From NCBI RefSeq assembly GCF_001886815.1, contig NZ_CP018099.1, forward strand, positions 3,346,501-3,410,500: DNA of 64,000 bases. The letters are read 5' to 3'. Each line of letters begins with the position of its first letter. Positions within the stretch are counted from its first letter, which is position 1. Below, in pieces: positions 21,850-39,269 of the stretch. The notes under the pieces were generated by a model that did no database searches, was not told where the DNA came from, and worked only from the letters and a program-made list of their open reading frames with translations. The DNA comes from Caldithrix abyssi DSM 13497. GTDB lineage: Bacteria > Calditrichota > Calditrichia > Calditrichales > Calditrichaceae. Made by a program: the position numbers and the translations under genes.

Positions 21850-23601
21850 TTATCTCATCAAAATCATTTTTTGCGTTTTTGTAAACTTTTCTGACTGTAA
21901 AGTTACAAAATAAATTCCGGAAGACAGATTGACCGCATTCCATTTCATTTCATATTGTCCGCCCGAAATGGCCCCTTCGTACAAAACATCTACTAACTGT
22001 CCCATAGAATTGTAAACAGAAAGCTTAATGTGCTGTAATTCACTGTTTAGCGTTGGTACGTCAAAGCGAATGGTCGTTTCAGGATTGAAGGGATTGGGAT
22101 AATTTTCATGTAGTGCAAATTCTTTTATGACTACAGCCCTTTGTTTAAAATCGATTCCCTTGGCATTCGGCGTGGCATTGACGGTGGAATGATAAGTAAT
22201 AACGCCGTTCATATCACGGTCGGCAAGACGATAATAATAAGTAAAACCGTTATAAACGGCTCTATCGGTAAAGGCGTAATTCGTTTCCTTACTTGTTGAA
22301 CCCTGCCCTTTGATTTCTGCAAACAGTTCAAAATTTTCCCCGTCCATACTCCGTTCCACTAAAAAGGCTTCGTTATTAACCTCAGAAGCAGTACTCCATT
22401 TTAAAGTTACAACGCCGTCGCCGGCTATTGCGTTGAATGAAGTCAATGCAACAGGAAGAGAAACATCGCCCCCTGAAAGCGGTTCATTACTAAGCGTAGT
22501 GTTAATTGTGCCAGCGACAAGAAAGATCGCTGCATTGTTTTGTACAACGCCTTGAATTACGCCGCTGGCATCCGTCGCCAGATCGCAAGTTACAAAATAG
22601 TATTTGGCGGTTGTCTGAAGGTCATCGGAAAAATCTGAAAAGCTGATGCTATTTCCGTCCCCAGGATCGTTAAGCACCGTAGCGCCCAACTGAATATCGG
22701 TTGAGGGATCAAATGAGGCATCCGTGCTGGACCATAATTTAAAATTACTGGCGCCCGATCGTGTGCCATTGAGAACAAAATTTGCCCCTACGAACCTGCT
22801 GCTGCCACTTTCTGTTGACAATGAAAAGCGACCGAAAGGCTGATTAATGGCGCCTGGCGTTAATCCTCCTGGTACATAATTACTCCCATTTGTAAAGATA
22901 ACATTAACTGCCGGGTCCAGCGCATTCTTAATTTCATTAGCCGAAAGAACCCTATCCCAGACCTTCATGGAATAAATTTTTCCTCCGGTTGTCCATTCAC
23001 TATTTGTCGCCTGATCATCATAGAAAAATCCAAACCTGCTGATCCCGCCTCCAACATTAAATGGCTCGCCTTCACCCTGGTCATTAAAAGAAAATTCTTC
23101 CGTAACCGTACCATCCGTATCTACCAAATAGGCGGTATATGTATCCGTTAACCCATCACGCGTAATAATGATGTCGTACATCGTATTGGCTAAAATCGTT
23201 TTGGTTCCAGAAGGAGATCCACTTCCAAAAAACTTTAGAACTCCATCCAAAAAATATAATCCATTATCACTGGCTTCATTCTTATAATCAATGATTTTTC
23301 TATAACCGGTTACCGTCTCGTATTCTACCCTTATGCCTACGGAATAATCCCCAATATTATCCAACGTTAGGTCTAATGTTAGTCCTCCACCCGGATTAGT
23401 ATTTGCCGTCCACTGCCAATAGGTATAATCACCGCTGCCGCCAAATGTGGATGAAAATGTGTTGGGATACACGGATAAAGTGCCGTTGGATGTTTCATTA
23501 TTTAAATTGCCGTTAAAATAGAAGACGGCGATGGGGTCGTTTGCAAATAGCCCATTCATAAAGAAAAGTAAAATCACAATATAAACAATGATACCTTTCA
23601 T
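21850..23601 (-). CDS. Secreted LamG-like/FN3 protein with type-A sorting domain
   Basis: The protein has 583 residues with a signal peptide (1-20, ending GLFA). Residues about 22-225 resemble a LamG/concanavalin jelly roll (DPIAVFYFNGNLNNETSNGT, IYSMKVWDRVLSANEIKNAL). The middle is beta-rich (about 240-400). An FN3-like segment carries LKWSTASEVNNEAFLVERS, common ahead of sorting domains. The end has HENYPNPFNPETTIRFDV and finishes TQKMILMR. It is probably displayed on or released from the cell surface. AAAGGAG precedes the ATG. It stands alone rather than in the main operon. Its 3' third is duplicated just upstream (23.7-24.2 kb). Confidence 0.78.
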   Translation of the reverse strand: MKGIIVYIVILLFFMNGLFANDPIAVFYFNGNLNNETSNGTLSVYPNTFSSTFGGSGDYTYWQWTANTNPGGGLTLDLTLDNIGDYSVGIRVEYETVTGYRKIIDYKNEASDNGLYFLDGVLKFFGSGSPSGTKTILANTMYDIIITRDGLTDTYTAYLVDTDGTVTEEFSFNDQGEGEPFNVGGGISRFGFFYDDQATNSEWTTGGKIYSMKVWDRVLSANEIKNALDPAVNVIFTNGSNYVPGGLTPGAINQPFGRFSLSTESGSSRFVGANFVLNGTRSGASNFKLWSSTDASFDPSTDIQLGATVLNDPGDGNSISFSDFSDDLQTTAKYYFVTCDLATDASGVIQGVVQNNAAIFLVAGTINTTLSNEPLSGGDVSLPVALTSFNAIAGDGVVTLKWSTASEVNNEAFLVERSMDGENFELFAEIKGQGSTSKETNYAFTDRAVYNGFTYYYRLADRDMNGVITYHSTVNATPNAKGIDFKQRAVVIKEFALHENYPNPFNPETTIRFDVPTLNSELQHIKLSVYNSMGQLVDVLYEGAISGGQYEMKWNAVNLSSGIYFVTLQSEKFTKTQKMILMR

Positions 23602-23707
23602 TTTTTTCTCCTTTTTTTTAAATAATTCATTTAAGATTACTTTTTTTTGAAAAATGCAGATTCTTCATCATTTTTTCCCTTCCCTTTTATCCTACTTTTA
23701 TATTTTT

Positions 23708-24262
23708 TTAAATTTGCGCCAATTGTTCTGATTGTAAAGTTACAAAATAAATTCCGGAAGACAGATTGACCGCATTCCAATTCATTTCATATTGTCCGCC
23801 CGAAATGGCCCCTTCGTACAAAACATCTACTAATTGTTCCATAGAATTGTAAACAGAAAGCTTAATGTGCTGTAATTCACTGTTTAGCGTTGGTACGTCA
23901 AAGCGAATGGTCGTTTCAGGATTGAAGGGATTGGGATAATTTGCATGCAGTGCAAATTCTTTTATGACTACAGCCCTTTGTTTAAAATCGATTCCTTTGG
24001 CATTCGGCGTGGCATTGACGGTGGAATGATAAGTAATTACGCCGTTCATATCGCGGTCGGCAAGACGATAATAATAAGTAAAACCGTTATAAACGGCTCT
24101 ATCCGTAAAGGCGTAATTCGTTACCTTACTTGTTGAACTTTGCCTTTTATTTTTTTGTAGCAGTTCAAAATTTTCGTCAACCGTATTGCGGTTAAAAAAT
24201 AACGGCGGGCTGAGGAACGTTTTAAGGCTTAACCTGATCGATATGCAAAAAGATAGTATCAT
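23708..24262 (-). pseudogene. Truncated duplicate of the 3' end of the adjacent sorting-domain gene
   Basis: About 150 residues (from VTNYAFTDRAVYNGFTYYY to VNLSSGIYFVTLQSE) are nearly identical to the C-terminal part of the gene at 21850-23601. The shared DNA is about 21888-22325 and 23725-24165. Only scattered changes separate the copies (HENYPNP against HANYPNP, NSMGQ against NSMEQ). The copy lacks the LamG region and the final KKMIL-type tail, ending instead in LAQI, and its first 35 residues do not match. It looks like a recent partial duplication that is no longer functional. The 24263-24596 stretch beyond it shows only low-complexity GGTTGGAT-like repeats. Confidence 0.75.
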
Positions 24263-24596: not shown

Positions 24597-26305
24597 GGAG
24601 GCTGTTGCATGGGGGGGAGGAATTAATGCTTATATTCTCCGATATTGATAATTTTTTCTCATTCTTAAGCGTTGGGCAAAATATAGAATTAAAAACGCCA
24701 AAATATTCTTTGAAAATAAAATTAATAGATCATCTTTTTCTTGTGATGCTGTTATAAACGCTGCTAAACGTTTCCCTAACATATTTTTAAATAGAACATT
24801 AATATTATGCCCAATACACATTAACGTAAATTCACTACGAACATTATTAAGACCAGATAAGGAAAATCCACGATAGCCTAAATTATGCTTCAAGTTACCA
24901 AAAACAGGTTCAACTGTCACCGAACGCTTTTTTAGTCGTTCCTGCGCCGCTGAAGTTTGTAACTTTTTCGCCATACGTTCGCAATAACTCTCATTAACTG
25001 AACGATGGATTTGCTTAACTTTCTTTTTACTGGAAATGCATAAATTAATTAAGGGACAATCCTGACAATCATTGGAACGATATACGATCCGTTCGCTATT
25101 TCTCTCAACTGGAAAAAGCTTCTTACCCGTCGGACATTCATAGTAATCTCCCTGTTCATGATACACAAAATCACTTCGTTTTAGTTTTCTTTCTTCTTTT
25201 TGCAATTCTTCCTTGGAGGTTGGTGTCTCCTTTATCGAACGATTGGATAACTGGGGATCGGCTATTACGGCATCAATCTGCTTTTCTTCCAATTCTTTTA
25301 GGTCTGTGCTATTGTGATAACCGGAATCGGCCGTGTAAGATCGCTTATCATCTGAACCAAGATTCTTCTCTACTTGTTCTTGAATCGGTATGAATTGACC
25401 CTGGTCGTTGGGCTGGCTTACGACTTCATGAGCTACTATTAAATGACTGGACATATCTACGCCTAATTGTGCGTTATAGCCCGGTCCATCCACCGAAGGC
25501 ATCATGCGGGCATCCGGCTCTTTTACATTTATTTGATGTCTTGAACGGTGTTCTGATTTGAGCTGTTTCTTACGCTCTTTCAATTGGGCTTTACGTTCTA
25601 ATATCTCTTTCTCTAAGCGCTCAAGCCGTTCTTTCTCCGCTCGAAGAGTTTCTAAATCTAATTCATCCGTGGCCCCCTGTTCTACAAAATTACAGCGCTG
25701 CATGTATTGCTTGATCTCTGCTCTTAACTTCTCTATACGTTTGTCTAATTGATCCTCAGTGTAGCCATGACGCTTACTGCTGTGCGCTTTGATTTTCGTG
25801 CCATCTATGGCTATCTGGTTGAAACTACTTATGCCTTCGGCCTGGGCAATTAAAAGTATCTCTACAAAATATTGGTCTAATAAATCCAAATGTGCCTTGC
25901 GAAAACGACTTAATGTACTATGATCCGGATGCTGATTCCCAGTGATATAAATGTAGCGCGTATCATATTTACACAATTCCTCCAGCTTACGGGTGCTGGT
26001 AATGCCGTTACTATAAGCATAAAACCATAAGGCAAGCATCATGTCTGGGGCATAAGAATCACCGCCTTGTGAACTATAACGGGAATAAAGTGCACTTAAA
26101 TCAAGGCGCGAAACCAACTCCACTACAAATCGACTCTTTGGATCGTCTCTGGCAAAATCTTCCACACTATAGCCAAAGAGATTCATTTGTGAGCGATTAT
26201 AAGTAATAAAACTCATGGAATTCCTTTGTTATTACTTGTTTTATCTGTCGCCCAGAATTTACAAATTTTTTGAATTTTACTCAAACTGAATTTGCAACAG
26301 CCTCC
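24597..26305 (-). mobile_element. IS1182-family insertion sequence
   Basis: The 13-bp perfect inverted repeat GGAGGCTGTTGCA (24597-24609) and its reverse complement (26293-26305) enclose a 1,709-bp element with one transposase gene. Size and transposase type fit IS1182. No clear target duplication was found. GCCAG and AGGGC flank the two ends, which may be halves of a short palindromic target. The element lies about 240 bp from the distal end of the CRISPR array. Confidence 0.8.
24630..26216 (-). CDS. IS1182-family transposase
   Basis: The protein has 528 residues and appears intact. The N-terminal DUF772-like region (about 45-115; DMMLALWFYAYSNGITSTRKL, HPDHSTLSRFRKAHL) is followed by the DDE core, with IAIDGTKIKAHSSK (first Asp), YTADSGYHN (second Asp) and VEPVFGNLKHNLGYRGF (Glu region). 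A charged helical stretch lies at about 155-225. It would cut and paste the element by DDE chemistry. The ATG at 26216 follows AAAGGA. The reading frame is undamaged, so the copy could be active. Confidence 0.9.
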   Translation of the reverse strand: MSFITYNRSQMNLFGYSVEDFARDDPKSRFVVELVSRLDLSALYSRYSSQGGDSYAPDMMLALWFYAYSNGITSTRKLEELCKYDTRYIYITGNQHPDHSTLSRFRKAHLDLLDQYFVEILLIAQAEGISSFNQIAIDGTKIKAHSSKRHGYTEDQLDKRIEKLRAEIKQYMQRCNFVEQGATDELDLETLRAEKERLERLEKEILERKAQLKERKKQLKSEHRSRHQINVKEPDARMMPSVDGPGYNAQLGVDMSSHLIVAHEVVSQPNDQGQFIPIQEQVEKNLGSDDKRSYTADSGYHNSTDLKELEEKQIDAVIADPQLSNRSIKETPTSKEELQKEERKLKRSDFVYHEQGDYYECPTGKKLFPVERNSERIVYRSNDCQDCPLINLCISSKKKVKQIHRSVNESYCERMAKKLQTSAAQERLKKRSVTVEPVFGNLKHNLGYRGFSLSGLNNVRSEFTLMCIGHNINVLFKNMLGKRLAAFITASQEKDDLLILFSKNILAFLILYFAQRLRMRKNYQYRRI

Positions 26306-26548: not shown

Positions 26549-29360
26549 GTCTTAATCCCTTCAAGCAGGTCATTCCTTTTCTACAAAAGGATCGGAACCG
26601 ATTAAAACCAAAATCGGTTTCGATTTCGTCTTAATCCCTTCAAGCAGGTCATTCCTTTTCTACTTGTGCGTAGTTAAACAAAAAAGGAGGAGAAAAAATG
26701 AAAAAGTCTTAATCCCTTCAAGCAGGTCATTCCTTTTCTACATGGCTTTACGTCGGCTATTGGCCACGTTGACACTGCGTCTTAATCCCTTCAAGCAGGT
26801 CATTCCTTTTCTACCAATTTGCTACTGACGAGGAAATTAAAAGAGGCCTTGCTATGGTCTTAATCCCTTCAAGCAGGTCATTCCTTTTCTACGTGTCTGG
26901 TTTTTCTTAAGTGATGAAACATATCGTGGGGTTAGTCTTAATCCCTTCAAGCAGGTCATTCCTTTTCTACCCGGCTTGCCGAAGCGGTCGATTTTAACCC
27001 TATCAAAGCAGTCTTAATCCCTTCAAGCAGGTCATTCCTTTTCTACCCTATTATGTTTATATTGTGTTATCCCCAATCCCACTTCTGAGTCTTAATCCCT
27101 TCAAGCAGGTCATTCCTTTTTTACTATTATCCGGCCCAGCGCCTCAGCCCGGACCGTGAGTGGTTCAGTCTTAATCCCTTCAAGCAGGTCATTCCTTTTC
27201 TACCTAAAACATGCTCACGAGATTGTTAGAGTTACAGAACATAGAGGTCTTAATCCCTTCAAGCAGGTCATTCCTTTTCTACGTCTTCTATTTCGGGGAA
27301 CTATTCCCCGATTGGGAAGACCTGTCTTAATCCCTTCAAGCAGGTCATTCCTTTTCTACACGTCAACCAAAAGGAGGTTTATTATGGATAAATTTATAGG
27401 TATTGTCTTAATCCCTTCAAGCAGGTCATTCCTTTTCTACGGGTCTTCTATTTCGGGGAACTATTCCCCGATTGGGAAGACCTGTCTTAATCCCTTCAAG
27501 CAGGTCATTCCTTTTCTACGAATTTTAACCTTGAGGAGAAAAGTCATGGAAAAAGTAATCGTGTCTTAATCCCTTCAAGCAGGTCATTCCTTTTCTACGT
27601 ACGGACGGATCAATGATTATTTATTCTTAAAATTGGTCTTAATCCCTTCAAGCAGGTCATTCCTTTTCTACAGTACTTAGTGCTCAAGACCTATCCAAAG
27701 CATCAGCTGATTAGTCTTAATCCCTTCAAGCAGGTCATTCCTTTTCTACTGAATAAAGGAGCGACGAAATGAATACTATATATGATGGTCTTAATCCCTT
27801 CAAGCAGGTCATTCCTTTTCTACTGGATTCCTAAGAAGGCGATTGAGTCTATCCAAGAGACTGGTCTTAATCCCTTCAAGCAGGTCATTCCTTTTCTACA
27901 ATTATTACCATTGTAAAAGGAGGCAAAAACGGATTACATGTCTTAATCCCTTCAAGCAGGTCATTCCTTTTCTACTGTTAGATCAAATCAAAAGAAGAGT
28001 AGAAAAAGGAAAATGGGTCTTAATCCCTTCAAGCAGGTCATTCCTTTTCTACTCCGGAAACCAGTCAGTCGCCATATAAAGCCCCAGCAGCCGTCTTAAT
28101 CCCTTCAAGCAGGTCATTCCTTTTCTACAAAAGGAAAATGGTGGGACACCGTAATATTCTACAGCGGTGAGTCTTAATCCCTTCAAGCAGGTCATTCCTT
28201 TTCTACTATAGTGAAGAAAATGAATAAAGGAGCGACGAAATGAATACTAGTCTTAATCCCTTCAAGCAGGTCATTCCTTTTCTACTTTGAATCCGTTCTT
28301 AGACTTATTAATAAAATGATAATAGGTCTTAATCCCTTCAAGCAGGTCATTCCTTTTCTACCAGTTAGAATTATTGCAAAAAGGAGATCTTAATGGTAGG
28401 TCTTAATCCCTTCAAGCAGGTCATTCCTTTTCTACTGGCTTTACGTCCGTCGTAGAGCCTTCCCTTCTTTATCCTCGTCTTAATCCCTTCAAGCAGGTCA
28501 TTCCTTTTCTACTCTACAGCGGTGATCCTAAGGTGTTTAATCCAGAAACTCAGTCTTAATCCCTTCAAGCAGGTCATTCCTTTTCTACTTAAAAGAAAAG
28601 GAGTAAAAGATGTTAGATCAAATCAAAAGGTCTTAATCCCTTCAAGCAGGTCATTCCTTTTCTACACAGAGAAAAATGCCGAAGCATTACGCAAGCTGGT
28701 TAAAAGGTCTTAATCCCTTCAAGCAGGTCATTCCTTTTCTACACGGTTATTAGTGGAAACTCAATTACTGCATGCAGAGAGGGAAGTCTTAATCCCTTCA
28801 AGCAGGTCATTCCTTTTCTACAAGGCAGCAATTTATGCTCGCAATGAGTTCGGAATGCGAAGCGGTCTTAATCCCTTCAAGCAGGTCATTCCTTTTCTAC
28901 AAAAATAATTTACAAAGAATTTGAAAAGGGGGGAAAGTCTTAATCCCTTCAAGCAGGTCATTCCTTTTCTACTAAGTTCTGCCCAGAGTGCGGAGAACCA
29001 CTGGCTTTTCACGGTCTTAATCCCTTCAAGCAGGTCATTCCTTTTCTACTATGTACTACTTAGTTTGTCTTTTTGTAGGCTTTCTTTTCGGTCTTAATCC
29101 CTTCAAGCAGGTCATTCCTTTTCTACTGCCGCAGTATAGCATTTAAAACCGCTTGGCATTCTGAAAAATGTCTTAATCCCTTCAAGCAGGTCATTCCTTT
29201 TCTACAAAGGTAACAAATTAGTTACTTACGCAGGGCTTTACCAGAGTCTTAATCCCTTCAAGCAGGTCATTCCTTTTCTACATTTTGGGAAGAAATAGAC
29301 GATAACGAGCTCCCCAATTCCGGCGTCTTAATCCCTTCAAGCAGGTCATTCCTTTTCTAC
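26549..29360 (-). CRISPR. CRISPR array, 37 repeats of 36 bp and 36 spacers (type III-A associated)
   Basis: On the plus strand each repeat begins GTCTTAATCCC and ends TTCCTTTTCTAC. Thirty-six copies are identical; the one at 27089 has TTTTTTAC at its end. Spacers run 36-45 bp. Read on the minus strand the repeat ends in GGGATTAAGAC, giving the handle ATTAAGAC, close to the ATTGAAAC-like handle of many type III and I crRNAs. With the leader next to cas2, transcription is inferred to be on the minus strand from about 29.4 kb leftward. On the plus strand most spacers read as sense coding sequence and several as ribosome-binding site plus ATG. Several spacers overlap each other. Confidence 0.98.
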
Positions 29361-29625
29361 TCCGGCAGCCGCCAACCCGCTCATATCAGGGATTGACATA
29401 GCCTCGTACGCGAACCTTCTTTCTTTTCTCGTATCTTTTTATCCTATCCCCGCTCCACCTTCGCTTTTCTCAAAGCTACTCCCTTGTTTTCAAAGAACTT
29501 ACAAAGCCTGCGCGAACCCCCTGCTAAATAGGCGCTTTTTACCTGTTACGCCCGGTTCGCGCAAATCTACTTTGATCTGTTTGCATAGCGCTTAAAGGCC
29601 TATGCCTTACGCAATGGAGCTCACT
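29361..29625 (-). promoter_or_regulatory. Probable CRISPR leader
   Basis: This 265-bp non-coding stretch joins the last cas gene to the array. It holds CGCGAACC three times: at 29409-29416 and 29510-29518 in one orientation and inverted at 29554-29562, so the last two can pair. Its AT-rich tracts and its place beside cas2 fit a leader. A clear -35/-10 pair for the array was not identified. Confidence 0.6.
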
Positions 29626-29907
29626 TCAATAAATATAGTATTCCTCGTTCGGTTCCTCGTCGTAACGTCCCTTACCGTATTTCTCTCGCTTCTGCCAGTC
29701 TGCCTCGCACAAATTAAAATAAACCACATAATCCTCATCCGCAATTATTTTTTGTATCTCTTTACGCAATTTCGAAATCTGTTCCGCCTCCACCTCCAGC
29801 TCAAATACCGATTTCTGCGCCCGCGTGCCGTAATTTTGTATCGTTTTTGCTACACGCCGCAAACGCTTTGCATCGCGTATGTCGTATAGTACCAGCCAAT
29901 GACTCAT
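29626..29907 (-). CDS. cas2: CRISPR-associated Cas2 (first of two by position)
   Basis: The protein has 93 residues with the Cas2 ferredoxin-like fold: WLVLYDIRDAKRLRRVAK at the N-terminus with the conserved Asp (D9), QKSVFELEVEAEQISKLRKEI in the middle and DYVVYFNLC near the end. It forms the dimer around which Cas1 assembles to capture and integrate spacers. The ATG overlaps the stop of the second cas2 by four bases (ATGA), so the two are translationally coupled. It is the last gene of the operon, next to the leader. The C-terminal tail is acidic and Tyr-rich. Confidence 0.9.
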   Translation of the reverse strand: MSHWLVLYDIRDAKRLRRVAKTIQNYGTRAQKSVFELEVEAEQISKLRKEIQKIIADEDYVVYFNLCEADWQKREKYGKGRYDEEPNEEYYIY

Positions 29908-30179
29908 AATATCTCAAAAGGCTCCAATTTTAATAGTTCGCCGTTCCCGTCGCTTAAAGGATGCTGCGCGCATTTATCGCACAACGGATAAATGAAAAAG
30001 GCGTCCTCTTTTTCGTCGATCAGCTTGCGCACCTCGCGCCGAATGTGTGCCATGCGCTGCGCATCCACGTCGCATTGAAAAAACGATTTTTGCACGCGCA
30101 AACCCTGGTCCTCCAAAAACCTGGCCACGCGCTGCAATCGCTTTCTTTCCGCAATATCGTAACACACCAGATAGATCAT
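29904..30179 (-). CDS. cas2: CRISPR-associated Cas2 (second paralogue)
   Basis: The protein has 91 residues and is clearly a second Cas2: MIYLVCYDIAERKRLQRVAR carries the conserved Asp (D8), followed by QKSFFQCDVDAQRMAHIRRE and FFIYPLC. It differs from the neighbouring Cas2 at most positions, so it is not a recent duplicate. Its tail contains CDKC. Four-base overlaps join it to cas1 upstream and cas2 downstream. Two tandem cas2 genes with one cas1 could give homodimers of each or a heterodimer in the adaptation complex. Confidence 0.9.
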   Translation of the reverse strand: MIYLVCYDIAERKRLQRVARFLEDQGLRVQKSFFQCDVDAQRMAHIRREVRKLIDEKEDAFFIYPLCDKCAQHPLSDGNGELLKLEPFEIL

Positions 30180-31289: not shown

Positions 31290-32444
31290 TTAAACCGCCC
31301 TAACTGCTTTCACCGTTATGGTGGCCCAGCCCGGCGGCACACTCGGCAGATCGTTTTGTACGACTAAACGCCGCGTTTTCGGAAAATCCTCCGCCTCTCC
31401 TTTTCCCAGATTGTAAATACGGCGCACCATTTCCTTTTGTGCGGGCGTCAACCAGTCGCCGGTCATAAAGCGCCAGCCGCCGCCCCAGCTCAAACGAACC
31501 AGATACTCGTTTTCGGCAAATTTTCTTTCCAGAATGGAGCGTTCGTAAAACCGTTTCACTTCCCTGAACTCCATTTCCTCAAAAAAGTCCTTTTCGCCTT
31601 CCGCTAACTTCAAAAAATGGGCGTGCACCCGCGGCCAGAACTCATCCGCCGAAGGTAAAGAAAAGGGCGTGGGCTTAAATTTTTCGTGCTCCAGCAAAAA
31701 GCGGTCTAAAACAACCCTCGTTGTTTGCGACAAAGCGTCCGCGCCCAGCGCCTCCAGCACAATAGAAGTGGCCTGCCGCGCCCGCTCGCGCGACAAATTT
31801 TTACGCTCTTTGCCCAGCAGTTTAAAAGCGTAACCCTGGCGCGTGCGCGTTAAAATCTTAACCTGAAAAAGAGCCAGCTCTTCCTTTTCAAAAGCCGCAT
31901 CCTCCACCTGCAGGGCGCGCAGCCAGTCGTTCTGAGGATGGTCGCCAAACAAATATTTTTCCACCTTTTGCGCCGCGTATTTATCCCTAACCTCTCTGCT
32001 CTGCGGTAAAAGGCGATCGATCTGCCTGGCGTCCGGCGCCTGCTCCAGCAAATAGCCCCACAGGGCGGTGCGCAGCGCGCCTTTAATCGAGCTGCCGGGA
32101 ATCAGCGGAACGCCCAGCCCGCTGCGCAACTGACTTTTGATCTCATTTATATTAATAGAATCCACAGGCAACCGGTAGCGCACAAATTCATTGCTCTGCC
32201 AGCCCACCCTGCGGAAAAATTTGTACAACGACGGACCTTCCGTTTGCAGCTCTTTGAAATAGGCGTCTTTAATCGACGGATCGGCCTGTTCGATCTTCTT
32301 TTGCAGGCGGTGGCTATCGTAAACGGTTAGCAGGTTTTGAAATATTTCGAAATCGGCGTTGCGCAGGTAGTTCTTTCCGCTACCCACATGCACGGGTGTC
32401 AGGGTTTTTAGGCGACAGTCAAAAACGATTTTAGTGGAATTCAT
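31290..32444 (-). CDS. csm5: Type III-A RAMP protein Csm5
   Basis: The protein has 384 residues and RAMP features: LKTLTPVHVGSGKNYLR near the N-terminus, VPLIPGSSIKGALRTALWGYL (glycine-rich loop, about 125-145) and further RAMP-like strands at the C-terminus. Csm5 caps the 3'-end side of the crRNA in the Csm complex and helps recruit maturation nucleases. The gene follows csm4 with an ATGA overlap and has AAAGGAGG upstream. Some 25-30 bp separate it from cas1, so effector and adaptation genes are probably one transcript. Confidence 0.87.
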   Translation of the reverse strand: MNSTKIVFDCRLKTLTPVHVGSGKNYLRNADFEIFQNLLTVYDSHRLQKKIEQADPSIKDAYFKELQTEGPSLYKFFRRVGWQSNEFVRYRLPVDSININEIKSQLRSGLGVPLIPGSSIKGALRTALWGYLLEQAPDARQIDRLLPQSREVRDKYAAQKVEKYLFGDHPQNDWLRALQVEDAAFEKEELALFQVKILTRTRQGYAFKLLGKERKNLSRERARQATSIVLEALGADALSQTTRVVLDRFLLEHEKFKPTPFSLPSADEFWPRVHAHFLKLAEGEKDFFEEMEFREVKRFYERSILERKFAENEYLVRLSWGGGWRFMTGDWLTPAQKEMVRRIYNLGKGEAEDFPKTRRLVVQNDLPSVPPGWATITVKAVRAV

Positions 32445-34635: not shown

Positions 34636-37149
34636 TTATCTGGTTAAATAATCTACCCATTGCGTTAAGGTCGGCAAAAGTTCGATGAAGGGGCGCGCGC
34701 CGGCTTTTTCCCGCTCATCGCCGGCCAAAAGGCGCATCAGCTCATCGATTAAGGGACTTAACGACCGGTTGCGCTCTTTAAAGCGCGTTAAGTCGTAAAC
34801 CATGCGCCATAACCAGCGTTCGTGACGCGCCAGGTTTTTGATCTGCGCCGCGTTAAAGCTCTGGCGTTGCAGTTCCAGGTAGCGTTTCTGGTACTCTTCC
34901 ACAATGCGCCACAGGTGATTGACCAGAGCGCGGTCGTACCGTCCGTCGGCTTTTTGAATGTTTTGCAGGATTTGCTCTTTAAGGTTTTCCAGTTCAAACC
35001 ATTCATTCCAGCTTAAAGGCAAACCAAAGGCTGTAAAGGCGTTTTTGCTCAGCCCATGGACGCTAAATTTCTTGGCCGTCTCTTCGGCCTGCCCGGCGTA
35101 TTCTGCGGATTTGTAGATGGGAAACTTGCCGCCAGTGATGGTCAGGCCGCCAGACATGGTAAAGGCCGGATTGTAACAGGTAAAGGCGGCAAACTTTTTG
35201 CGGATTTCCAGCGCTTTTTCCATAACCACATCCCAGGCGCCCACAATGAACAAATCGTCGCCGCCAGCGTACACAATGGCGCAACGCGCCGCTTCCTCAT
35301 CCGCAATCAGCTGATTCAAATAGCCGCTAAAAAACAGGCTGAGCTGGCCGCTGAGGGTGGTCAGACGCGCCAGGGAGTAAAAATGGCCGTTTCCTTCGCC
35401 CTCTGCGCTTTTAACACGGTAATGGCGTAACCCCCTGCTAAAGATCATACCCAGGTTGTCCACATCCATGCGCAAAACGCCCAGCTTTTCGAAGCCCGTT
35501 TGACCGCGACCGGCAATTTCGTCAAAGGTGGCGTCCAGCTTGCGCGTGCCGCCGTAGTGTTTAAAACCAAGCTGAAAACGGGCCAGATCAGCCGCTCCCA
35601 GCCGTTCTTTGGGCAGGCGATTTTTGAACCATTCGTTTTCAAAAAGCGCGTCGTAACAGGTGTCGTTAAATTGAAATATCTGATCGCCGCTTTTCAACTT
35701 TTGCAACCATTCGGTATCCAGCTTCTGGTGTAAATAAATTCTTTTGCCCAAAAAGAGATCGAACTTGCTGCCGGCCTTTTTTTCGCGCGTCAGCACCAGA
35801 TATCTGGCCTTTTTCAGTTGTTCGCCCTTTTTCAAAAGCTCAACGCACACCGGGCAAAGCTGCGCGTTGTTGATCGTTTTCAGTTCGCGCTCTTCGGCCT
35901 CGCCGTGGCAGGCGTCGCAGGTTTTCAAATCGCCTTTGCCAGGCCCGAAATAATCTTTGTATTTTTGACGGTTTTTCAACAGGGTAATAAACGGTTGCTG
36001 CGCCTGGCGCTGCAAACCGCGGTTCACCGCCTCCCATTTTTGCCACAGACGACCGTTTTTCAACATCAAATCATCGCCGCTCAGTTCGGTAAAGGCGCTG
36101 CGTAAATGGATCGCCCCGCTAAATTTGTCGAACAGGTCTTCGTTAACCGCCTGACTAACGCCCGTAATGGTTTCGATGGTTTGCGGCGTGTTGGGCAGCA
36201 GCAGGTAAAATTTTCCGCCGCTGGAATAGATGATGTTCACACGCGTCAGCCCCAGCGCCTCGGCAAAGTGTTCGGCTGCCAGATCGCTTAAAATCTGAAT
36301 GTAAAACGAACGGCCCTTGAGCAGCGAATAGGCGCCTTTAGAAGAGATCTGGTAAATAAAGTTCTGAATACCGCCCAGGTCGCCGCTAAACAACAAAAAT
36401 TTCTTTTGCGCGCGATTCTTAATCTTTTCTACGTCGTTCAGCGTGTTGTCCGCTTTGTGAAAAACGTACAGGCAACTGGCCAGCGCGGCCGTGGTTTTAG
36501 CGTGTTCAAACAGGCTAACGTCCGGGAAATCCCGTTTGCGCGTGGTGGAAGGTACCGCCCACCAGAACTTTTGCAGCAGAAAATACAGGGTGTCGATCTT
36601 TTGGTCGATATCGTGCCTGAGCAGTTTTTCAAATTCCGCATCGAACTGGCGGAACAGGGCCTGATAATCGTCTCTCAAATCAAGACTTTCCGGCGCCTCG
36701 CGCGGAAAGGCGTTCGCCTCGTCGGGTTGCAGGGCGCGCAGCGGTAAGTAATACCGCCCTTCGATGGCCTGGCCGTCATCCTCCAGAGCCACAAATTCGG
36801 TTACCGGTTTAAGCGGGGTTTTGAACTTTTGCGTCCCGCCTTCGCGCTCGTCTGCGGCGTACGAGGCCCGTTCCATGCCAGAAGACAGACGATCGGCCTC
36901 GGCAATCATCCATTCCATGGGACTGCTGTCCGATGGTTTGTGATGCATGGCCGCGTAGTTGAACCAGGGCGGCTGACGCGAACCGTCCCATTGAATCCGC
37001 GTCCTTAAAAATTTTTCGGTTGCCGCCGCGTGAGCCCATTGAAAACGCGCCGCTTCCGCGTCCGAAAAAGAAAACTCCTGCGGGCTTCCTCTCTCGGCAA
37101 ACTTGCCCACGTCGTGCAGCAAACCGGCAAGCACAATGTCTTTAACCAT
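34636..37149 (-). CDS. cas10: Type III-A signature protein Cas10/Csm1 with HD nuclease and cyclase
   Basis: The protein has 837 residues from the ATG at 37149, chosen because AAGGAG lies six bases upstream. An ATG at 37167 is less likely. The HD nuclease motif LLHDVGKF is at the N-terminus (H12, D13). A four-Cys zinc site (CDAC...CPVC) lies near residues 411-435. The Palm domain carries LRMDVDNLG and the cyclase motif AGGDDLF (GGDD near 629-632), so it should make cyclic oligoadenylate and cut single-stranded DNA after target-RNA binding. Its start overlaps the end of cas6 by eight bases. No Csm6 or other CARF effector was found in the window. Confidence 0.96.
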   Translation of the reverse strand: MVKDIVLAGLLHDVGKFAERGSPQEFSFSDAEAARFQWAHAAATEKFLRTRIQWDGSRQPPWFNYAAMHHKPSDSSPMEWMIAEADRLSSGMERASYAADEREGGTQKFKTPLKPVTEFVALEDDGQAIEGRYYLPLRALQPDEANAFPREAPESLDLRDDYQALFRQFDAEFEKLLRHDIDQKIDTLYFLLQKFWWAVPSTTRKRDFPDVSLFEHAKTTAALASCLYVFHKADNTLNDVEKIKNRAQKKFLLFSGDLGGIQNFIYQISSKGAYSLLKGRSFYIQILSDLAAEHFAEALGLTRVNIIYSSGGKFYLLLPNTPQTIETITGVSQAVNEDLFDKFSGAIHLRSAFTELSGDDLMLKNGRLWQKWEAVNRGLQRQAQQPFITLLKNRQKYKDYFGPGKGDLKTCDACHGEAEERELKTINNAQLCPVCVELLKKGEQLKKARYLVLTREKKAGSKFDLFLGKRIYLHQKLDTEWLQKLKSGDQIFQFNDTCYDALFENEWFKNRLPKERLGAADLARFQLGFKHYGGTRKLDATFDEIAGRGQTGFEKLGVLRMDVDNLGMIFSRGLRHYRVKSAEGEGNGHFYSLARLTTLSGQLSLFFSGYLNQLIADEEAARCAIVYAGGDDLFIVGAWDVVMEKALEIRKKFAAFTCYNPAFTMSGGLTITGGKFPIYKSAEYAGQAEETAKKFSVHGLSKNAFTAFGLPLSWNEWFELENLKEQILQNIQKADGRYDRALVNHLWRIVEEYQKRYLELQRQSFNAAQIKNLARHERWLWRMVYDLTRFKERNRSLSPLIDELMRLLAGDEREKAGARPFIELLPTLTQWVDYLTR

Positions 37150-38068
37150 GAACTTCTCCTTCCACAAAGGTGACTTTTATTTTGCCCAATCCAAAGCTGG
37201 TGTTTTTACCCACATGAAAAATTTCGGCGCCCTTTAACAAAGAAAGCGCCATAGCCGAGAATTGCCCCTCCACAGATAAAATGCCTACCACGCCGCCCAG
37301 ACGCATCTGCCGCTTTTGCCGCGCCGACCAGCGCACGTAGTCCTTCCACTGCATCTGCGCGTTTTCAGAGAACACTTCGATCTGCGGAAAGGGCATGCGC
37401 ACAAAATCTTTAGCGCCGTACGTTCCCACTAAAATCTCCATCCGCCGTTTGGCCGCCTGTAAAACATCTTCCACGCTCATCTCCTTTAAATACCTTCCAT
37501 CTTTTTTAAAGCGTACAGGCGTCAAAAATTCCAAAAATAATTTGCCTTTTTTTATGGTTTCTTCTTCCAAAAGCTGCCAGTGGTAAGGGCCGCCAGGCAG
37601 ATTTAGCTTTTCGTCCTTAAACGACGGCTGCCCGTTAATCTTCAGTTCGTCGATTTTGTAGCGCACCCTGTTTTTAAAAATGCCCGTTTCTCCTGCGCGA
37701 ATAAAACTCCAGAAAATAATGGGAATGTATTCCGCCGCCTGGCCGATTAAAATCATTTTTAGATTCAAACGCTCCGTGGACTGGCTTTCCCCAACGTCGC
37801 TGGACATCACAAAGGGATGCGAGGCGAAATTGCGGCCGTACAGAACCGGATTGTCGCGCGTAACCGGCGATTCAAACACAAACGAGTAAGCGCATTTAAA
37901 ACGCAGTGTGCACCTTTCGCACATCCTGGAGCGAAAGGGACAGATCAGATAAAAAAGCTCCTTGCCTAACAACGAACGAAAATAAAACACAGGATGTCTG
38001 TTAAAAATTACAGGTTTTTCGAAGTGCAAAGCCATTTCCATGGTTTGATACGCAAGTTGCCAGCTCAT
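37142..38068 (-). CDS. cas6: Cas6-family pre-crRNA endoribonuclease
   Basis: The protein has about 308 residues from the ATG at 38068, seven bases after GGAG; an ATG at 38089 is possible. A cluster of cysteines (CPFRSRMCERCTLRFKCAYS) near residue 50, then LKMILIGQAAEYIPIIFWSF and a C-terminal RAMP loop, HVGKNTSFGLGKIKVTF, fit the PF10040 type of Cas6. It would cut the repeat eight bases before its end to leave the ATTAAGAC handle. It is the first gene of the cas operon. The promoter region (38090-38250) is AT-rich with no strong consensus. Confidence 0.85.
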   Translation of the reverse strand: MSWQLAYQTMEMALHFEKPVIFNRHPVFYFRSLLGKELFYLICPFRSRMCERCTLRFKCAYSFVFESPVTRDNPVLYGRNFASHPFVMSSDVGESQSTERLNLKMILIGQAAEYIPIIFWSFIRAGETGIFKNRVRYKIDELKINGQPSFKDEKLNLPGGPYHWQLLEEETIKKGKLFLEFLTPVRFKKDGRYLKEMSVEDVLQAAKRRMEILVGTYGAKDFVRMPFPQIEVFSENAQMQWKDYVRWSARQKRQMRLGGVVGILSVEGQFSAMALSLLKGAEIFHVGKNTSFGLGKIKVTFVEGEVHG

Positions 38069-38250
38069 TTGCATGCTCCTATGTTTCAATTACAATAATT
38101 TGCAGGATTAAAATGATTAAACGAGTTACCGATTAAAAACAATCGATCAGAGGATTTTTATTAACAGCCAATCACAGTTTCACAGGTAAATAGAAGATAC
38201 AAAAGATAGAATTGTTACGCAATATGCAGGTCTGCTTTTTCAAATGACGG

Positions 38251-38660
38251 CGGGGTGGACAGTCATTCCGGCCGGGCCCGGCGAAAGCCGGAATCCCTTG
38301 CAAAGTGGAAGGGACAGTCATTCCGGCCGAGCGCAGCGAGAGCCGGAATCCCTTGCAAAACTAAGGGGATTCCCGCTTGCGCAGGAATGACGTGGAAGGG
38401 TGGAAGGGATTCCCGCCTGCGCGGGAATGACGGCGGGGCGGACAGTCATTCCGGCCGAGCGCAGCGAGAGCCGGAACCCCTTGCAAAGTGGAAGGGACAG
38501 TCATTCCGGCCGAGCCCGGCGAGAGCCGGAATCCCATGCAAAACGAAGGGAATTCCCGCTTGCGCAGGAATGACGTGGAAGGGTGGAAGGGATTCCCGCC
38601 TGCGCGGGAATGACAGCGAGGCGGTCATTCCGGCCGGGCCCGGCGAAAGCCGGAATCCCC
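38251..38660. repeat. Cluster of palindromic REP-like repeats in a 183-bp tandem arrangement
   Basis: Two palindromic units alternate. Type A carries GTCATTCCGGCCG...CGGCGAAAGCCGGAATCCC (five copies). Type B carries GGGATTCCCGCCTGCGCGGGAATGAC (four copies). The order A-A-B-B is repeated with a 183-bp step (38261 to 38444) and ends with a fifth A at about 38625, inside nadD. Related units occur at about 40818-40845 and 60610-60700. Each unit could fold into a strong hairpin. The plus-strand open frame across this stretch is an artefact of the repeats. Confidence 0.85.
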
Positions 38661-39269
38661 TGCCTCCCTGTAACCATACAATTGATGTTCTTCGATGTAG
38701 CGCCACACAGGCGGAGGCAACAGGCTGCGGCAGGGTAAACCCGTTTTGATGCGCTGGCGGATTAAAGAAGATGATATTTCAATTAGCGGAGCTTTAACAA
38801 ACAAAAATTTTTCTTTCGGCAAATGTGCGGGCAGTTCACCCCCCGGCCGATCGTACACCACAAAGCGAGCCATTTTTAAAAGCGTTTTATACTCCCTCCA
38901 GCGGTGGAATTCGGCTAAATTATCGCCGCCAATGAAAAAATACAATTCTGCCAGGGGCCAGGTTTGCTTAAAGTAACTTAGCGTATCAATGGTGTAAGAA
39001 ACGCCGCCGCGTCTGATTTCAACGTCCGAAAGGACAAAATGGGGAAAATCATCAAGAGCCCGCTGAACCATTTCCAGCCGGTGGAAAGCTGGTGTAATAC
39101 GCTCTCTTTTTCCAAAAGGATGTTCGGCCACAGGGATGAAAATGACGCGCTCCAATCCGAGCTCGCTGGCGATCCATTCGGCAATGATCAGGTGGCCGTG
39201 ATGGATGGGATCAAAGGTGCCACCAAACAGACCAAGCTTAGTTGCCAGAGCCGGAGAAGACCTGCTCAT
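38625..39269 (-). CDS. nadD: Nicotinate-nucleotide adenylyltransferase
   Basis: The protein has 214 residues. The nucleotidyltransferase signature LFGGTFDPIHHGHL lies near the N-terminus (HxGH), and ISSSLIRQR near 170 is the second substrate-binding motif. It makes deamido-NAD from nicotinate mononucleotide and ATP in the cytoplasm. The last eight residues (GFRRARPE) and the stop codon come from a type-A palindromic repeat, so the natural C-terminus was changed by repeat insertion. The 5' end overlaps bamD by 32 bp. Confidence 0.93.
   Translation of the reverse strand: MSRSSPALATKLGLFGGTFDPIHHGHLIIAEWIASELGLERVIFIPVAEHPFGKRERITPAFHRLEMVQRALDDFPHFVLSDVEIRRGGVSYTIDTLSYFKQTWPLAELYFFIGGDNLAEFHRWREYKTLLKMARFVVYDRPGGELPAHLPKEKFLFVKAPLIEISSSLIRQRIKTGLPCRSLLPPPVWRYIEEHQLYGYREAGDSGFRRARPE

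What the first reader, a model, noticed from the sequence alone, without database searches (positions are those of the whole stretch)
26549..29360. CRISPR spacers enriched for Shine-Dalgarno plus ATG: crRNAs antisense to translation starts
Read on the plus strand, seven of 36 spacers contain a ribosome-binding site and a well-spaced ATG: 26664-26705 (AAAGGAGGAGAAAAAATG), 27360-27404 (AAAGGAGGTTTATTATG), 27520-27562, 27750-27787, 28207-28249, 28362-28399 and 28589-28629. Three more have an ATG at or near their first bases (26742, 29050, and 26893 with a TAA-GTG-ATG junction). On the reverse strand I found at most one weak candidate (28053-28092). If the array is transcribed on the minus strand, as handle and leader suggest, the crRNAs are antisense to mRNA starts. 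A start region is a small part of a genome, so chance sampling should rarely hit it. Spacers may be captured from, or kept because they target, ribosome-bound 5' mRNA ends.
Basis: partly seen in the sequence, partly recalled or inferred. Interest (0 to 1): 0.92.

Follow-up and report, generated by a model that had tools for sequence, protein, structure and literature searches.

The report
CRISPR guides antisense to gene starts
A bacterial RNA-targeting (type III-A) CRISPR memory bank holds several times more snippets from the starts of viral genes than expected, all facing the way that lets its guides pair with viral messages; a similar start-of-gene bias has been reported before in acquisition experiments, so this is a natural, statistically modest example rather than a new mechanism.

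Summary
The array (37 repeats, 36 spacers) lies in a complete type III-A locus and is read on the minus strand. Coding-strand windows of three annotated phages predict 1.5-2.5 (P about 1e-4 to 2.5e-3). A relative's independent III-A array repeats it (9/43 vs 1). Phylum relatives: type III 28/204 vs type I 3/94 (Fisher P=0.004). Across the other type III arrays sampled the strand asymmetry is 86:25, but the excess over coding-strand sampling is small outside this phylum. Antisense crRNAs are therefore supported, and expected for type III. The 'ribosome-bound 5' mRNA end' idea is not supported: the complete genome shows no reverse transcriptase, Cas1 has no RT domain, and several targeted starts look operon-internal (TAATG, ATGA junctions). 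No exact protospacer was found; one spacer (S07) maps by peptide to phage TROVE/Ro60 genes, in a gene body. A review of type III-A acquisition experiments already reports enrichment 10-50 bp downstream of start codons. Best reading: known RT-free III-A acquisition bias plus selection for antisense guides.

The parts
26549..29360 (-). CRISPR array, 37 repeats (36 nt) and 36 spacers; crRNA handle ATTAAGAC on the minus strand; leader-proximal end at 29360
29361..29625 (-). leader between cas2 and the first repeat; alignable with the leader of the G007 III-A array
   Evidence: no sigma-70 promoter match in it
26664..26705 (+). spacer S35, SD + ATG (AAAGGAGGAGAAAAAATG)
27360..27404 (+). spacer S26, SD + ATG (AAAGGAGGTTTATTATG)
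27520..27562 (+). spacer S24, SD + ATG
27750..27787 (+). spacer S21, SD + ATG; same start as S15; ATGA overlap with an upstream ORF
28207..28249 (+). spacer S15, SD + ATG; overlaps S21 by 29 nt
28362..28399 (+). spacer S13, SD + ATG; TAATG stop-start overlap
28589..28629 (+). spacer S10, SD + ATG; first tile of one gene start
27976..28016 (+). spacer S18, second tile of the S10 gene start (begins at the TG of the ATG)
   Evidence: 19-nt overlap with S10
28129..28170 (+). spacer S16, third tile
   Evidence: 13-nt overlap with S18
28513..28552 (+). spacer S11, fourth tile
   Evidence: 13-nt overlap with S16
28822..28864 (+). spacer S07, encodes KAAIYARNEFGMRS of a viral TROVE/Ro60-like gene; gene body, sense
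28666..28706 (+). spacer S09, weak peptide match further down the same TROVE gene
   Evidence: not above reversed-peptide control on score alone
29626..29907 (-). cas2
   Evidence: TIGR01573
29904..30179 (-). second cas2
   Evidence: TIGR01573
30176..31264 (-). cas1, no RT domain
   Evidence: TIGR00287 and PF01867 only
31290..32444 (-). csm5
   Evidence: TIGR01899
32441..33460 (-). csm4
   Evidence: TIGR01903
33464..34189 (-). csm3
   Evidence: TIGR02582
34233..34619 (-). csm2
   Evidence: TIGR01870
34636..37167 (-). cas10/csm1 with GGDD and HD motifs in the sequence
   Evidence: TIGR02578 (630 bits)
37142..38089 (-). cas6 (below the curated cut-off, placed by context)
   Evidence: TIGR01877 E=2e-8

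Best explanation
An ordinary reverse-transcriptase-free type III-A (Csm) CRISPR system. Its Cas1-Cas2 takes spacers from invader DNA with a known preference for regions around gene starts, probably because the coding strand is exposed there as single-stranded DNA by transcription; cells whose crRNAs are antisense to viral mRNA survive, which fixes the orientation. The natural array is therefore rich in translation-initiation regions read antisense. Shown here: III-A locus, minus-strand orientation by sequence, strand asymmetry, start excess over coding-strand sampling in this array and in one relative, no RT. Inferred: that acquisition rather than selection sets the position, and the exposed-ssDNA step.
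For: Complete III-A locus with its own cas1-cas2. SD+ATG 8/36 vs 0/36, P 1e-4 to 2.5e-3 against coding-strand phage windows. Independent G007 array 9/43 vs 1/43, P 6e-5 to 1.9e-3. Type III 28/204 vs type I 3/94 in the phylum, P=0.004. Strand asymmetry 86:25 outside this array. No RT in the genome. Four spacers tile one start. Published: III-A acquisition enriched 10-50 bp downstream of start codons, coding strand (PMC9048733); orientation by selection (PMC7515739); type III coding-strand bias (PMC8482600).
Against: Protospacers at starts were not found, so start status rests on motifs. Two other arrays of the phylum (G030, L202) show no clear excess. In a 19-array sample of another phylum the excess over coding sampling is only 1.3-1.8x against GVE2 and P74-26. 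Hairpin preference, the other reported III-A signature, is not significant. The published bias is downstream of the start codon; here spacers include the start itself.
Confidence: 0.5

Rival explanations
1. No positional bias: coding-strand spacers were sampled evenly from viruses with many very short, SD-led genes, plus luck and the fact that this array was picked because it looked striking.
For: With a 10-12% null the own array is only P 0.02-0.06. Other type III arrays show a smaller excess and some none (G030, L202).
Against: Early regions of GVE2 with small genes reach only about 7%. The unselected G007 array shows the same rate; pooled own+G007 17/79 has P 0.002 even at 10%.
Confidence: 0.27
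2. Position by selection: acquisition is even, but crRNAs covering the ribosome-binding site and start protect best, because that RNA is accessible or because blocking translation initiation adds to Csm cleavage, so such spacers are kept.
For: Positional and strand bias in Thermus was due to selection of protective spacers (PMC7515739). Start spacers lie at S10-S35, none among the nine newest (small numbers).
Against: No direct test of protection at starts was found in the papers searched; a start bias is reported in acquisition data on host genes, where selection for antiviral protection does not act (PMC9048733).
Confidence: 0.18
3. Spacers were captured from ribosome-bound 5' ends of viral mRNA.
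For: Orientation and start-proximity would fit; RT-like domains next to or fused with Cas1 occur in other members of the phylum.
Against: No RVT_1 in the complete genome, plain Cas1. S10, S13, S15/S21 and S32 appear to carry the end of an upstream ORF, so they are not mRNA 5' ends.
Confidence: 0.04

Closest known systems
RT-free type III-A spacer acquisition in Streptococcus thermophilus and Staphylococcus epidermidis (Zhang et al. 2021, Aviram et al. 2022, read through review PMC9048733)
   Same: Type III-A, own Cas1-Cas2, no RT; enrichment near start codons and on the coding strand
   Different: There: laboratory acquisition, host genes, 10-50 bp downstream of start codons, plus hairpin preference. 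Here: a natural array, foreign targets, spacers that include SD and ATG; hairpin preference not significant
Type III acquisition in Thermus thermophilus under phage infection (PMC7515739)
   Same: RT-free type III; surviving spacers antisense to phage transcripts; clustering in narrow target regions
   Different: There the positional bias is to early genes, no start-codon bias mentioned in the passages read
RT-Cas1 type III systems (Marinomonas and others; PMC5513706, PMC11014452)
   Same: Type III arrays with transcription-linked spacer content
   Different: No RT here; RT-like domains by Cas1 occur only in other members of the phylum

Membership tests
Type III-A (Csm) CRISPR-Cas | Cas10/Csm1 with palm domain | tested here: met
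   TIGR02578 630 bits; Pfam palm2 and Csm1_B; GGDD and HD motifs in the sequence
Type III-A (Csm) CRISPR-Cas | Csm2, Csm3, Csm4, Csm5 | tested here: met
   all four over curated cut-offs
Type III-A (Csm) CRISPR-Cas | crRNA made from the strand whose repeat ends in the 8-nt handle | not testable with these tools
   inferred from handle, gene order and leader; needs small-RNA data
RT-Cas1 (RNA-acquiring) type III | reverse transcriptase fused to or beside Cas1 | tested here: not met
   Cas1 362 aa with Cas1 domain only; no RVT_1 in the genome
RT-free III-A start-biased acquisition | excess of spacers at gene starts over coding-strand sampling | tested here: met
   sensitive to the null chosen
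RT-free III-A start-biased acquisition | peak 10-50 bp downstream of the start codon | tested here: inconclusive
   only one tiled gene (S10, S18, S16, S11) covers -21 to +98; no mapped protospacers
RT-free III-A start-biased acquisition | preference for hairpin-forming DNA | tested here: inconclusive
   four of 36 own spacers are strong hairpins, but phylum type III 7.8% vs random phage 4.7%, P=0.11

The most novel reading that the evidence does not exclude
Natural type III-A memory in some lineages (this phylum, perhaps some others) is focused on translation-initiation regions inside operons, either because adaptation is coupled to an event at start codons (for example polymerase pausing that exposes the coding strand) or because guides that cover the ribosome-binding site protect best; this would be a position rule within genes not described for natural arrays in the papers searched.
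Probability: 0.3. Interest if true: 0.68.

Novelty: new member of a known kind. Interest (0 to 1): 0.42.

Why it matters
If the pattern holds, natural arrays record where on viral genes an RT-free type III system samples DNA, which makes a laboratory acquisition bias visible in nature and testable by comparing arrays. It also gives a simple way to ask whether position is set by acquisition or by protection. If only the strand part holds, it is ordinary type III behaviour.

Tried and rejected
Protospacer searches: all spacers against 50,697 phage records, 40 genomes of the phylum (only the array itself), plasmids (only a repeat-similar stretch), degenerate peptide patterns in IMG/VR (for the S10 tile, for S29, S31, S20, for a G007 spacer pair: nothing; TROVE genes for S07). 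Other type III arrays against phages: no match. A peptide search of all spacers over four viral contigs, two of them only nearly whole, gave matches no better than reversed-peptide controls except S07, so S09 stays suggestive. Hairpin enrichment looked strong against type I arrays and a small random set but was not significant against a larger random phage set, so I dropped it as support. ATG position inside start spacers shows no sharp footprint. RNA capture rejected. Sigma-70 promoter in the leader: none.

Full report
WHAT IS THERE. The window lies in a single-contig genome of 4,978,541 bases. The array at 26549-29360 has 37 repeats of 36 nt and 36 spacers of 36-45 nt; it is the only array with this repeat in the genome. 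Upstream on the minus strand lie cas6, cas10/csm1, csm2, csm3, csm4, csm5, cas1, cas2, cas2. This is a complete type III-A locus with its own adaptation genes. Cas10 carries the GGDD palm motif and an HD motif in its sequence. A relative (G007, same family) has the same gene order with the array in the same place and an alignable leader. The handle-like ATTAAGAC, the gene order and the leader all say the array is read on the minus strand. The genome also has a second system, with Cas1 and a Cas3-like protein beside a 30-nt-repeat array that I take to be type I-B.

THE OBSERVATION. I used two regular expressions: core (AGGA, GGAG or GAGG, 4-12 nt, ATG) and strong (five-base SD, 3-11 nt, ATG). 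In this array they hit 8 and 7 of 36 spacers on the plus strand and none on the minus strand. Dinucleotide shuffles of the same spacers give 1.5 and 0.6 (P about 0.001). The sharper null is that a type III spacer already comes from a coding strand: 41-nt coding-strand windows of Geobacillus virus E2, Thermus phage P74-26 and T4 hold core SD+ATG in 4-7%. Against that null the own array has P 1e-4 to 2.5e-3. Two of the seven overlap (27750, 28207), so six starts are independent. With a pessimistic 10% null the single-array P is 0.02-0.06. Spacers S10, S18, S16 and S11 tile one gene start from -21 to about +98, all in the same sense: a hot spot at one start, not only a count of motifs.

REPLICATION. 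Because the window was noticed for this pattern, the independent arrays matter more. G007's III-A array: 9/43 target-sense, 1/43 crRNA-sense, P 6e-5 to 1.9e-3. Two others in the phylum (G030, L202) show no clear excess. All type III arrays of the phylum: 28/204 vs 2/204; type I arrays of the same phylum: 3/94 vs 1/94; type III against type I Fisher P=0.004, or 0.02 without the own array (several small arrays were typed by repeat, spacer length and neighbouring Cas1 only). Eighty Csm3-selected loci from many phyla, together with the phylum's arrays: 47 vs 16 core hits in 783 spacers; 35 vs 15 without the phylum's arrays. A further sample of 60 loci from another phylum gave 19 arrays, all oriented by one handle rule, 382 spacers: 31 vs 8, strong 22 vs 5, P 0.0003 and 0.0015 for strand. 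Pooled outside the own array: 86 vs 25. So the strand asymmetry is general. The excess over coding-strand sampling is clear in this array and G007, and only 1.3-1.8x in the 19-array sample against GVE2 and P74-26, where both strands are raised alike and it may be composition. Bacteroidota make up much of the 80-locus sample and, from general knowledge, often lack Shine-Dalgarno motifs, so the test is blunt there.

TARGETS. No protospacer was found at DNA level in phage records, plasmids or the phylum's genomes. One peptide pattern, from spacer S07 (KAAIYARNEFGMRS), hits 11 IMG/VR contigs inside TROVE/Ro60-like genes (PF05731), with 33/38 nt identity in one. The spacer is in sense with the gene, so the crRNA is antisense, and it lies about 207 nt after the ATG in L218. 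S09 weakly matches the same gene further downstream on the same strand, but reversed-peptide controls reach similar scores. So the array is not made only of starts, and at least one gene-body spacer has the antisense orientation too.

MECHANISM. RNA capture is unlikely: no RVT_1 reverse transcriptase in the complete genome while control genomes ring, and Cas1 has no RT domain. Nor do these look like 5' mRNA ends: S13 has a TAATG overlap, S15/S21 an ATGA overlap, S32 TAAGTGATGA, and S10 a stop a few nucleotides before the ATG, the look of operon-internal starts. The upstream ORFs are inferred from short sequence. A published bias fits: a review of type III adaptation reports that RT-free III-A acquisition in S. 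thermophilus was enriched about 10-50 bp downstream of start codons and on the coding strand, explained by ssDNA displaced during transcription (PMC9048733); the primary papers are not held. Selection then explains orientation: in Thermus, unselected type III spacers come from both strands and protective ones are antisense (PMC7515739); type III spacers in general are 65% coding-strand (PMC8482600). RNA polymerase pausing at start codons would supply the exposed strand; that link is my own suggestion and untested. Whether acquisition or selection sets the position cannot be told from sequence.

VERDICT. Observation confirmed; antisense reading supported and expected; start enrichment real but modest in evidence, strongest in this phylum; 5' mRNA-end capture not supported; the kind of bias already reported. 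The value is as a natural example and a test bed.

Noticed in passing
28822-28864; L213-L223: Spacer S07 matches TROVE/Ro60-like genes carried by 11 IMG/VR viral contigs; Ro60-like proteins in phages as a CRISPR target may deserve a look.
   Followed up: partly
29626-30179: Two tandem, different cas2 genes follow cas1; the G007 locus has the same pair.
   Followed up: no
29361-29625: The leader holds repeated GGTTCGCG-like motifs in both orientations, partly conserved in the G007 leader.
   Followed up: no
26585-26627, 27283-27323, 27441-27483, 28436-28476: Spacers S36, S27, S25 and S12 form strong hairpins (z -4.9 to -6.1); S25 and S27 are the same sequence shifted by two bases at one end.
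   Followed up: partly
24630-26216: An IS1182-family transposase gene lies at the distal end of the array.
   Followed up: no
21850-24262: The 184-aa ORF at 23708-24262 nearly repeats the C-terminal part of the 583-aa ORF at 21850-23601, next to the IS element: a partial duplication.
   Followed up: no
38255-38749: A 164-aa ORF made of repeated GIPACAGM/RRRES-like stretches, probably dispersed intergenic DNA repeats rather than a gene.
   Followed up: no
NZ_AP024856.1 29741-29922 and six other places: A Photobacterium toruni plasmid has an unannotated stretch resembling this array's repeats (71% identity over pieces).
   Followed up: no
L069:17828-19982, L070: The G007 III-A array also holds overlapping same-strand spacers and pairs of diverged versions of one target, as in the window's array.
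   Followed up: partly
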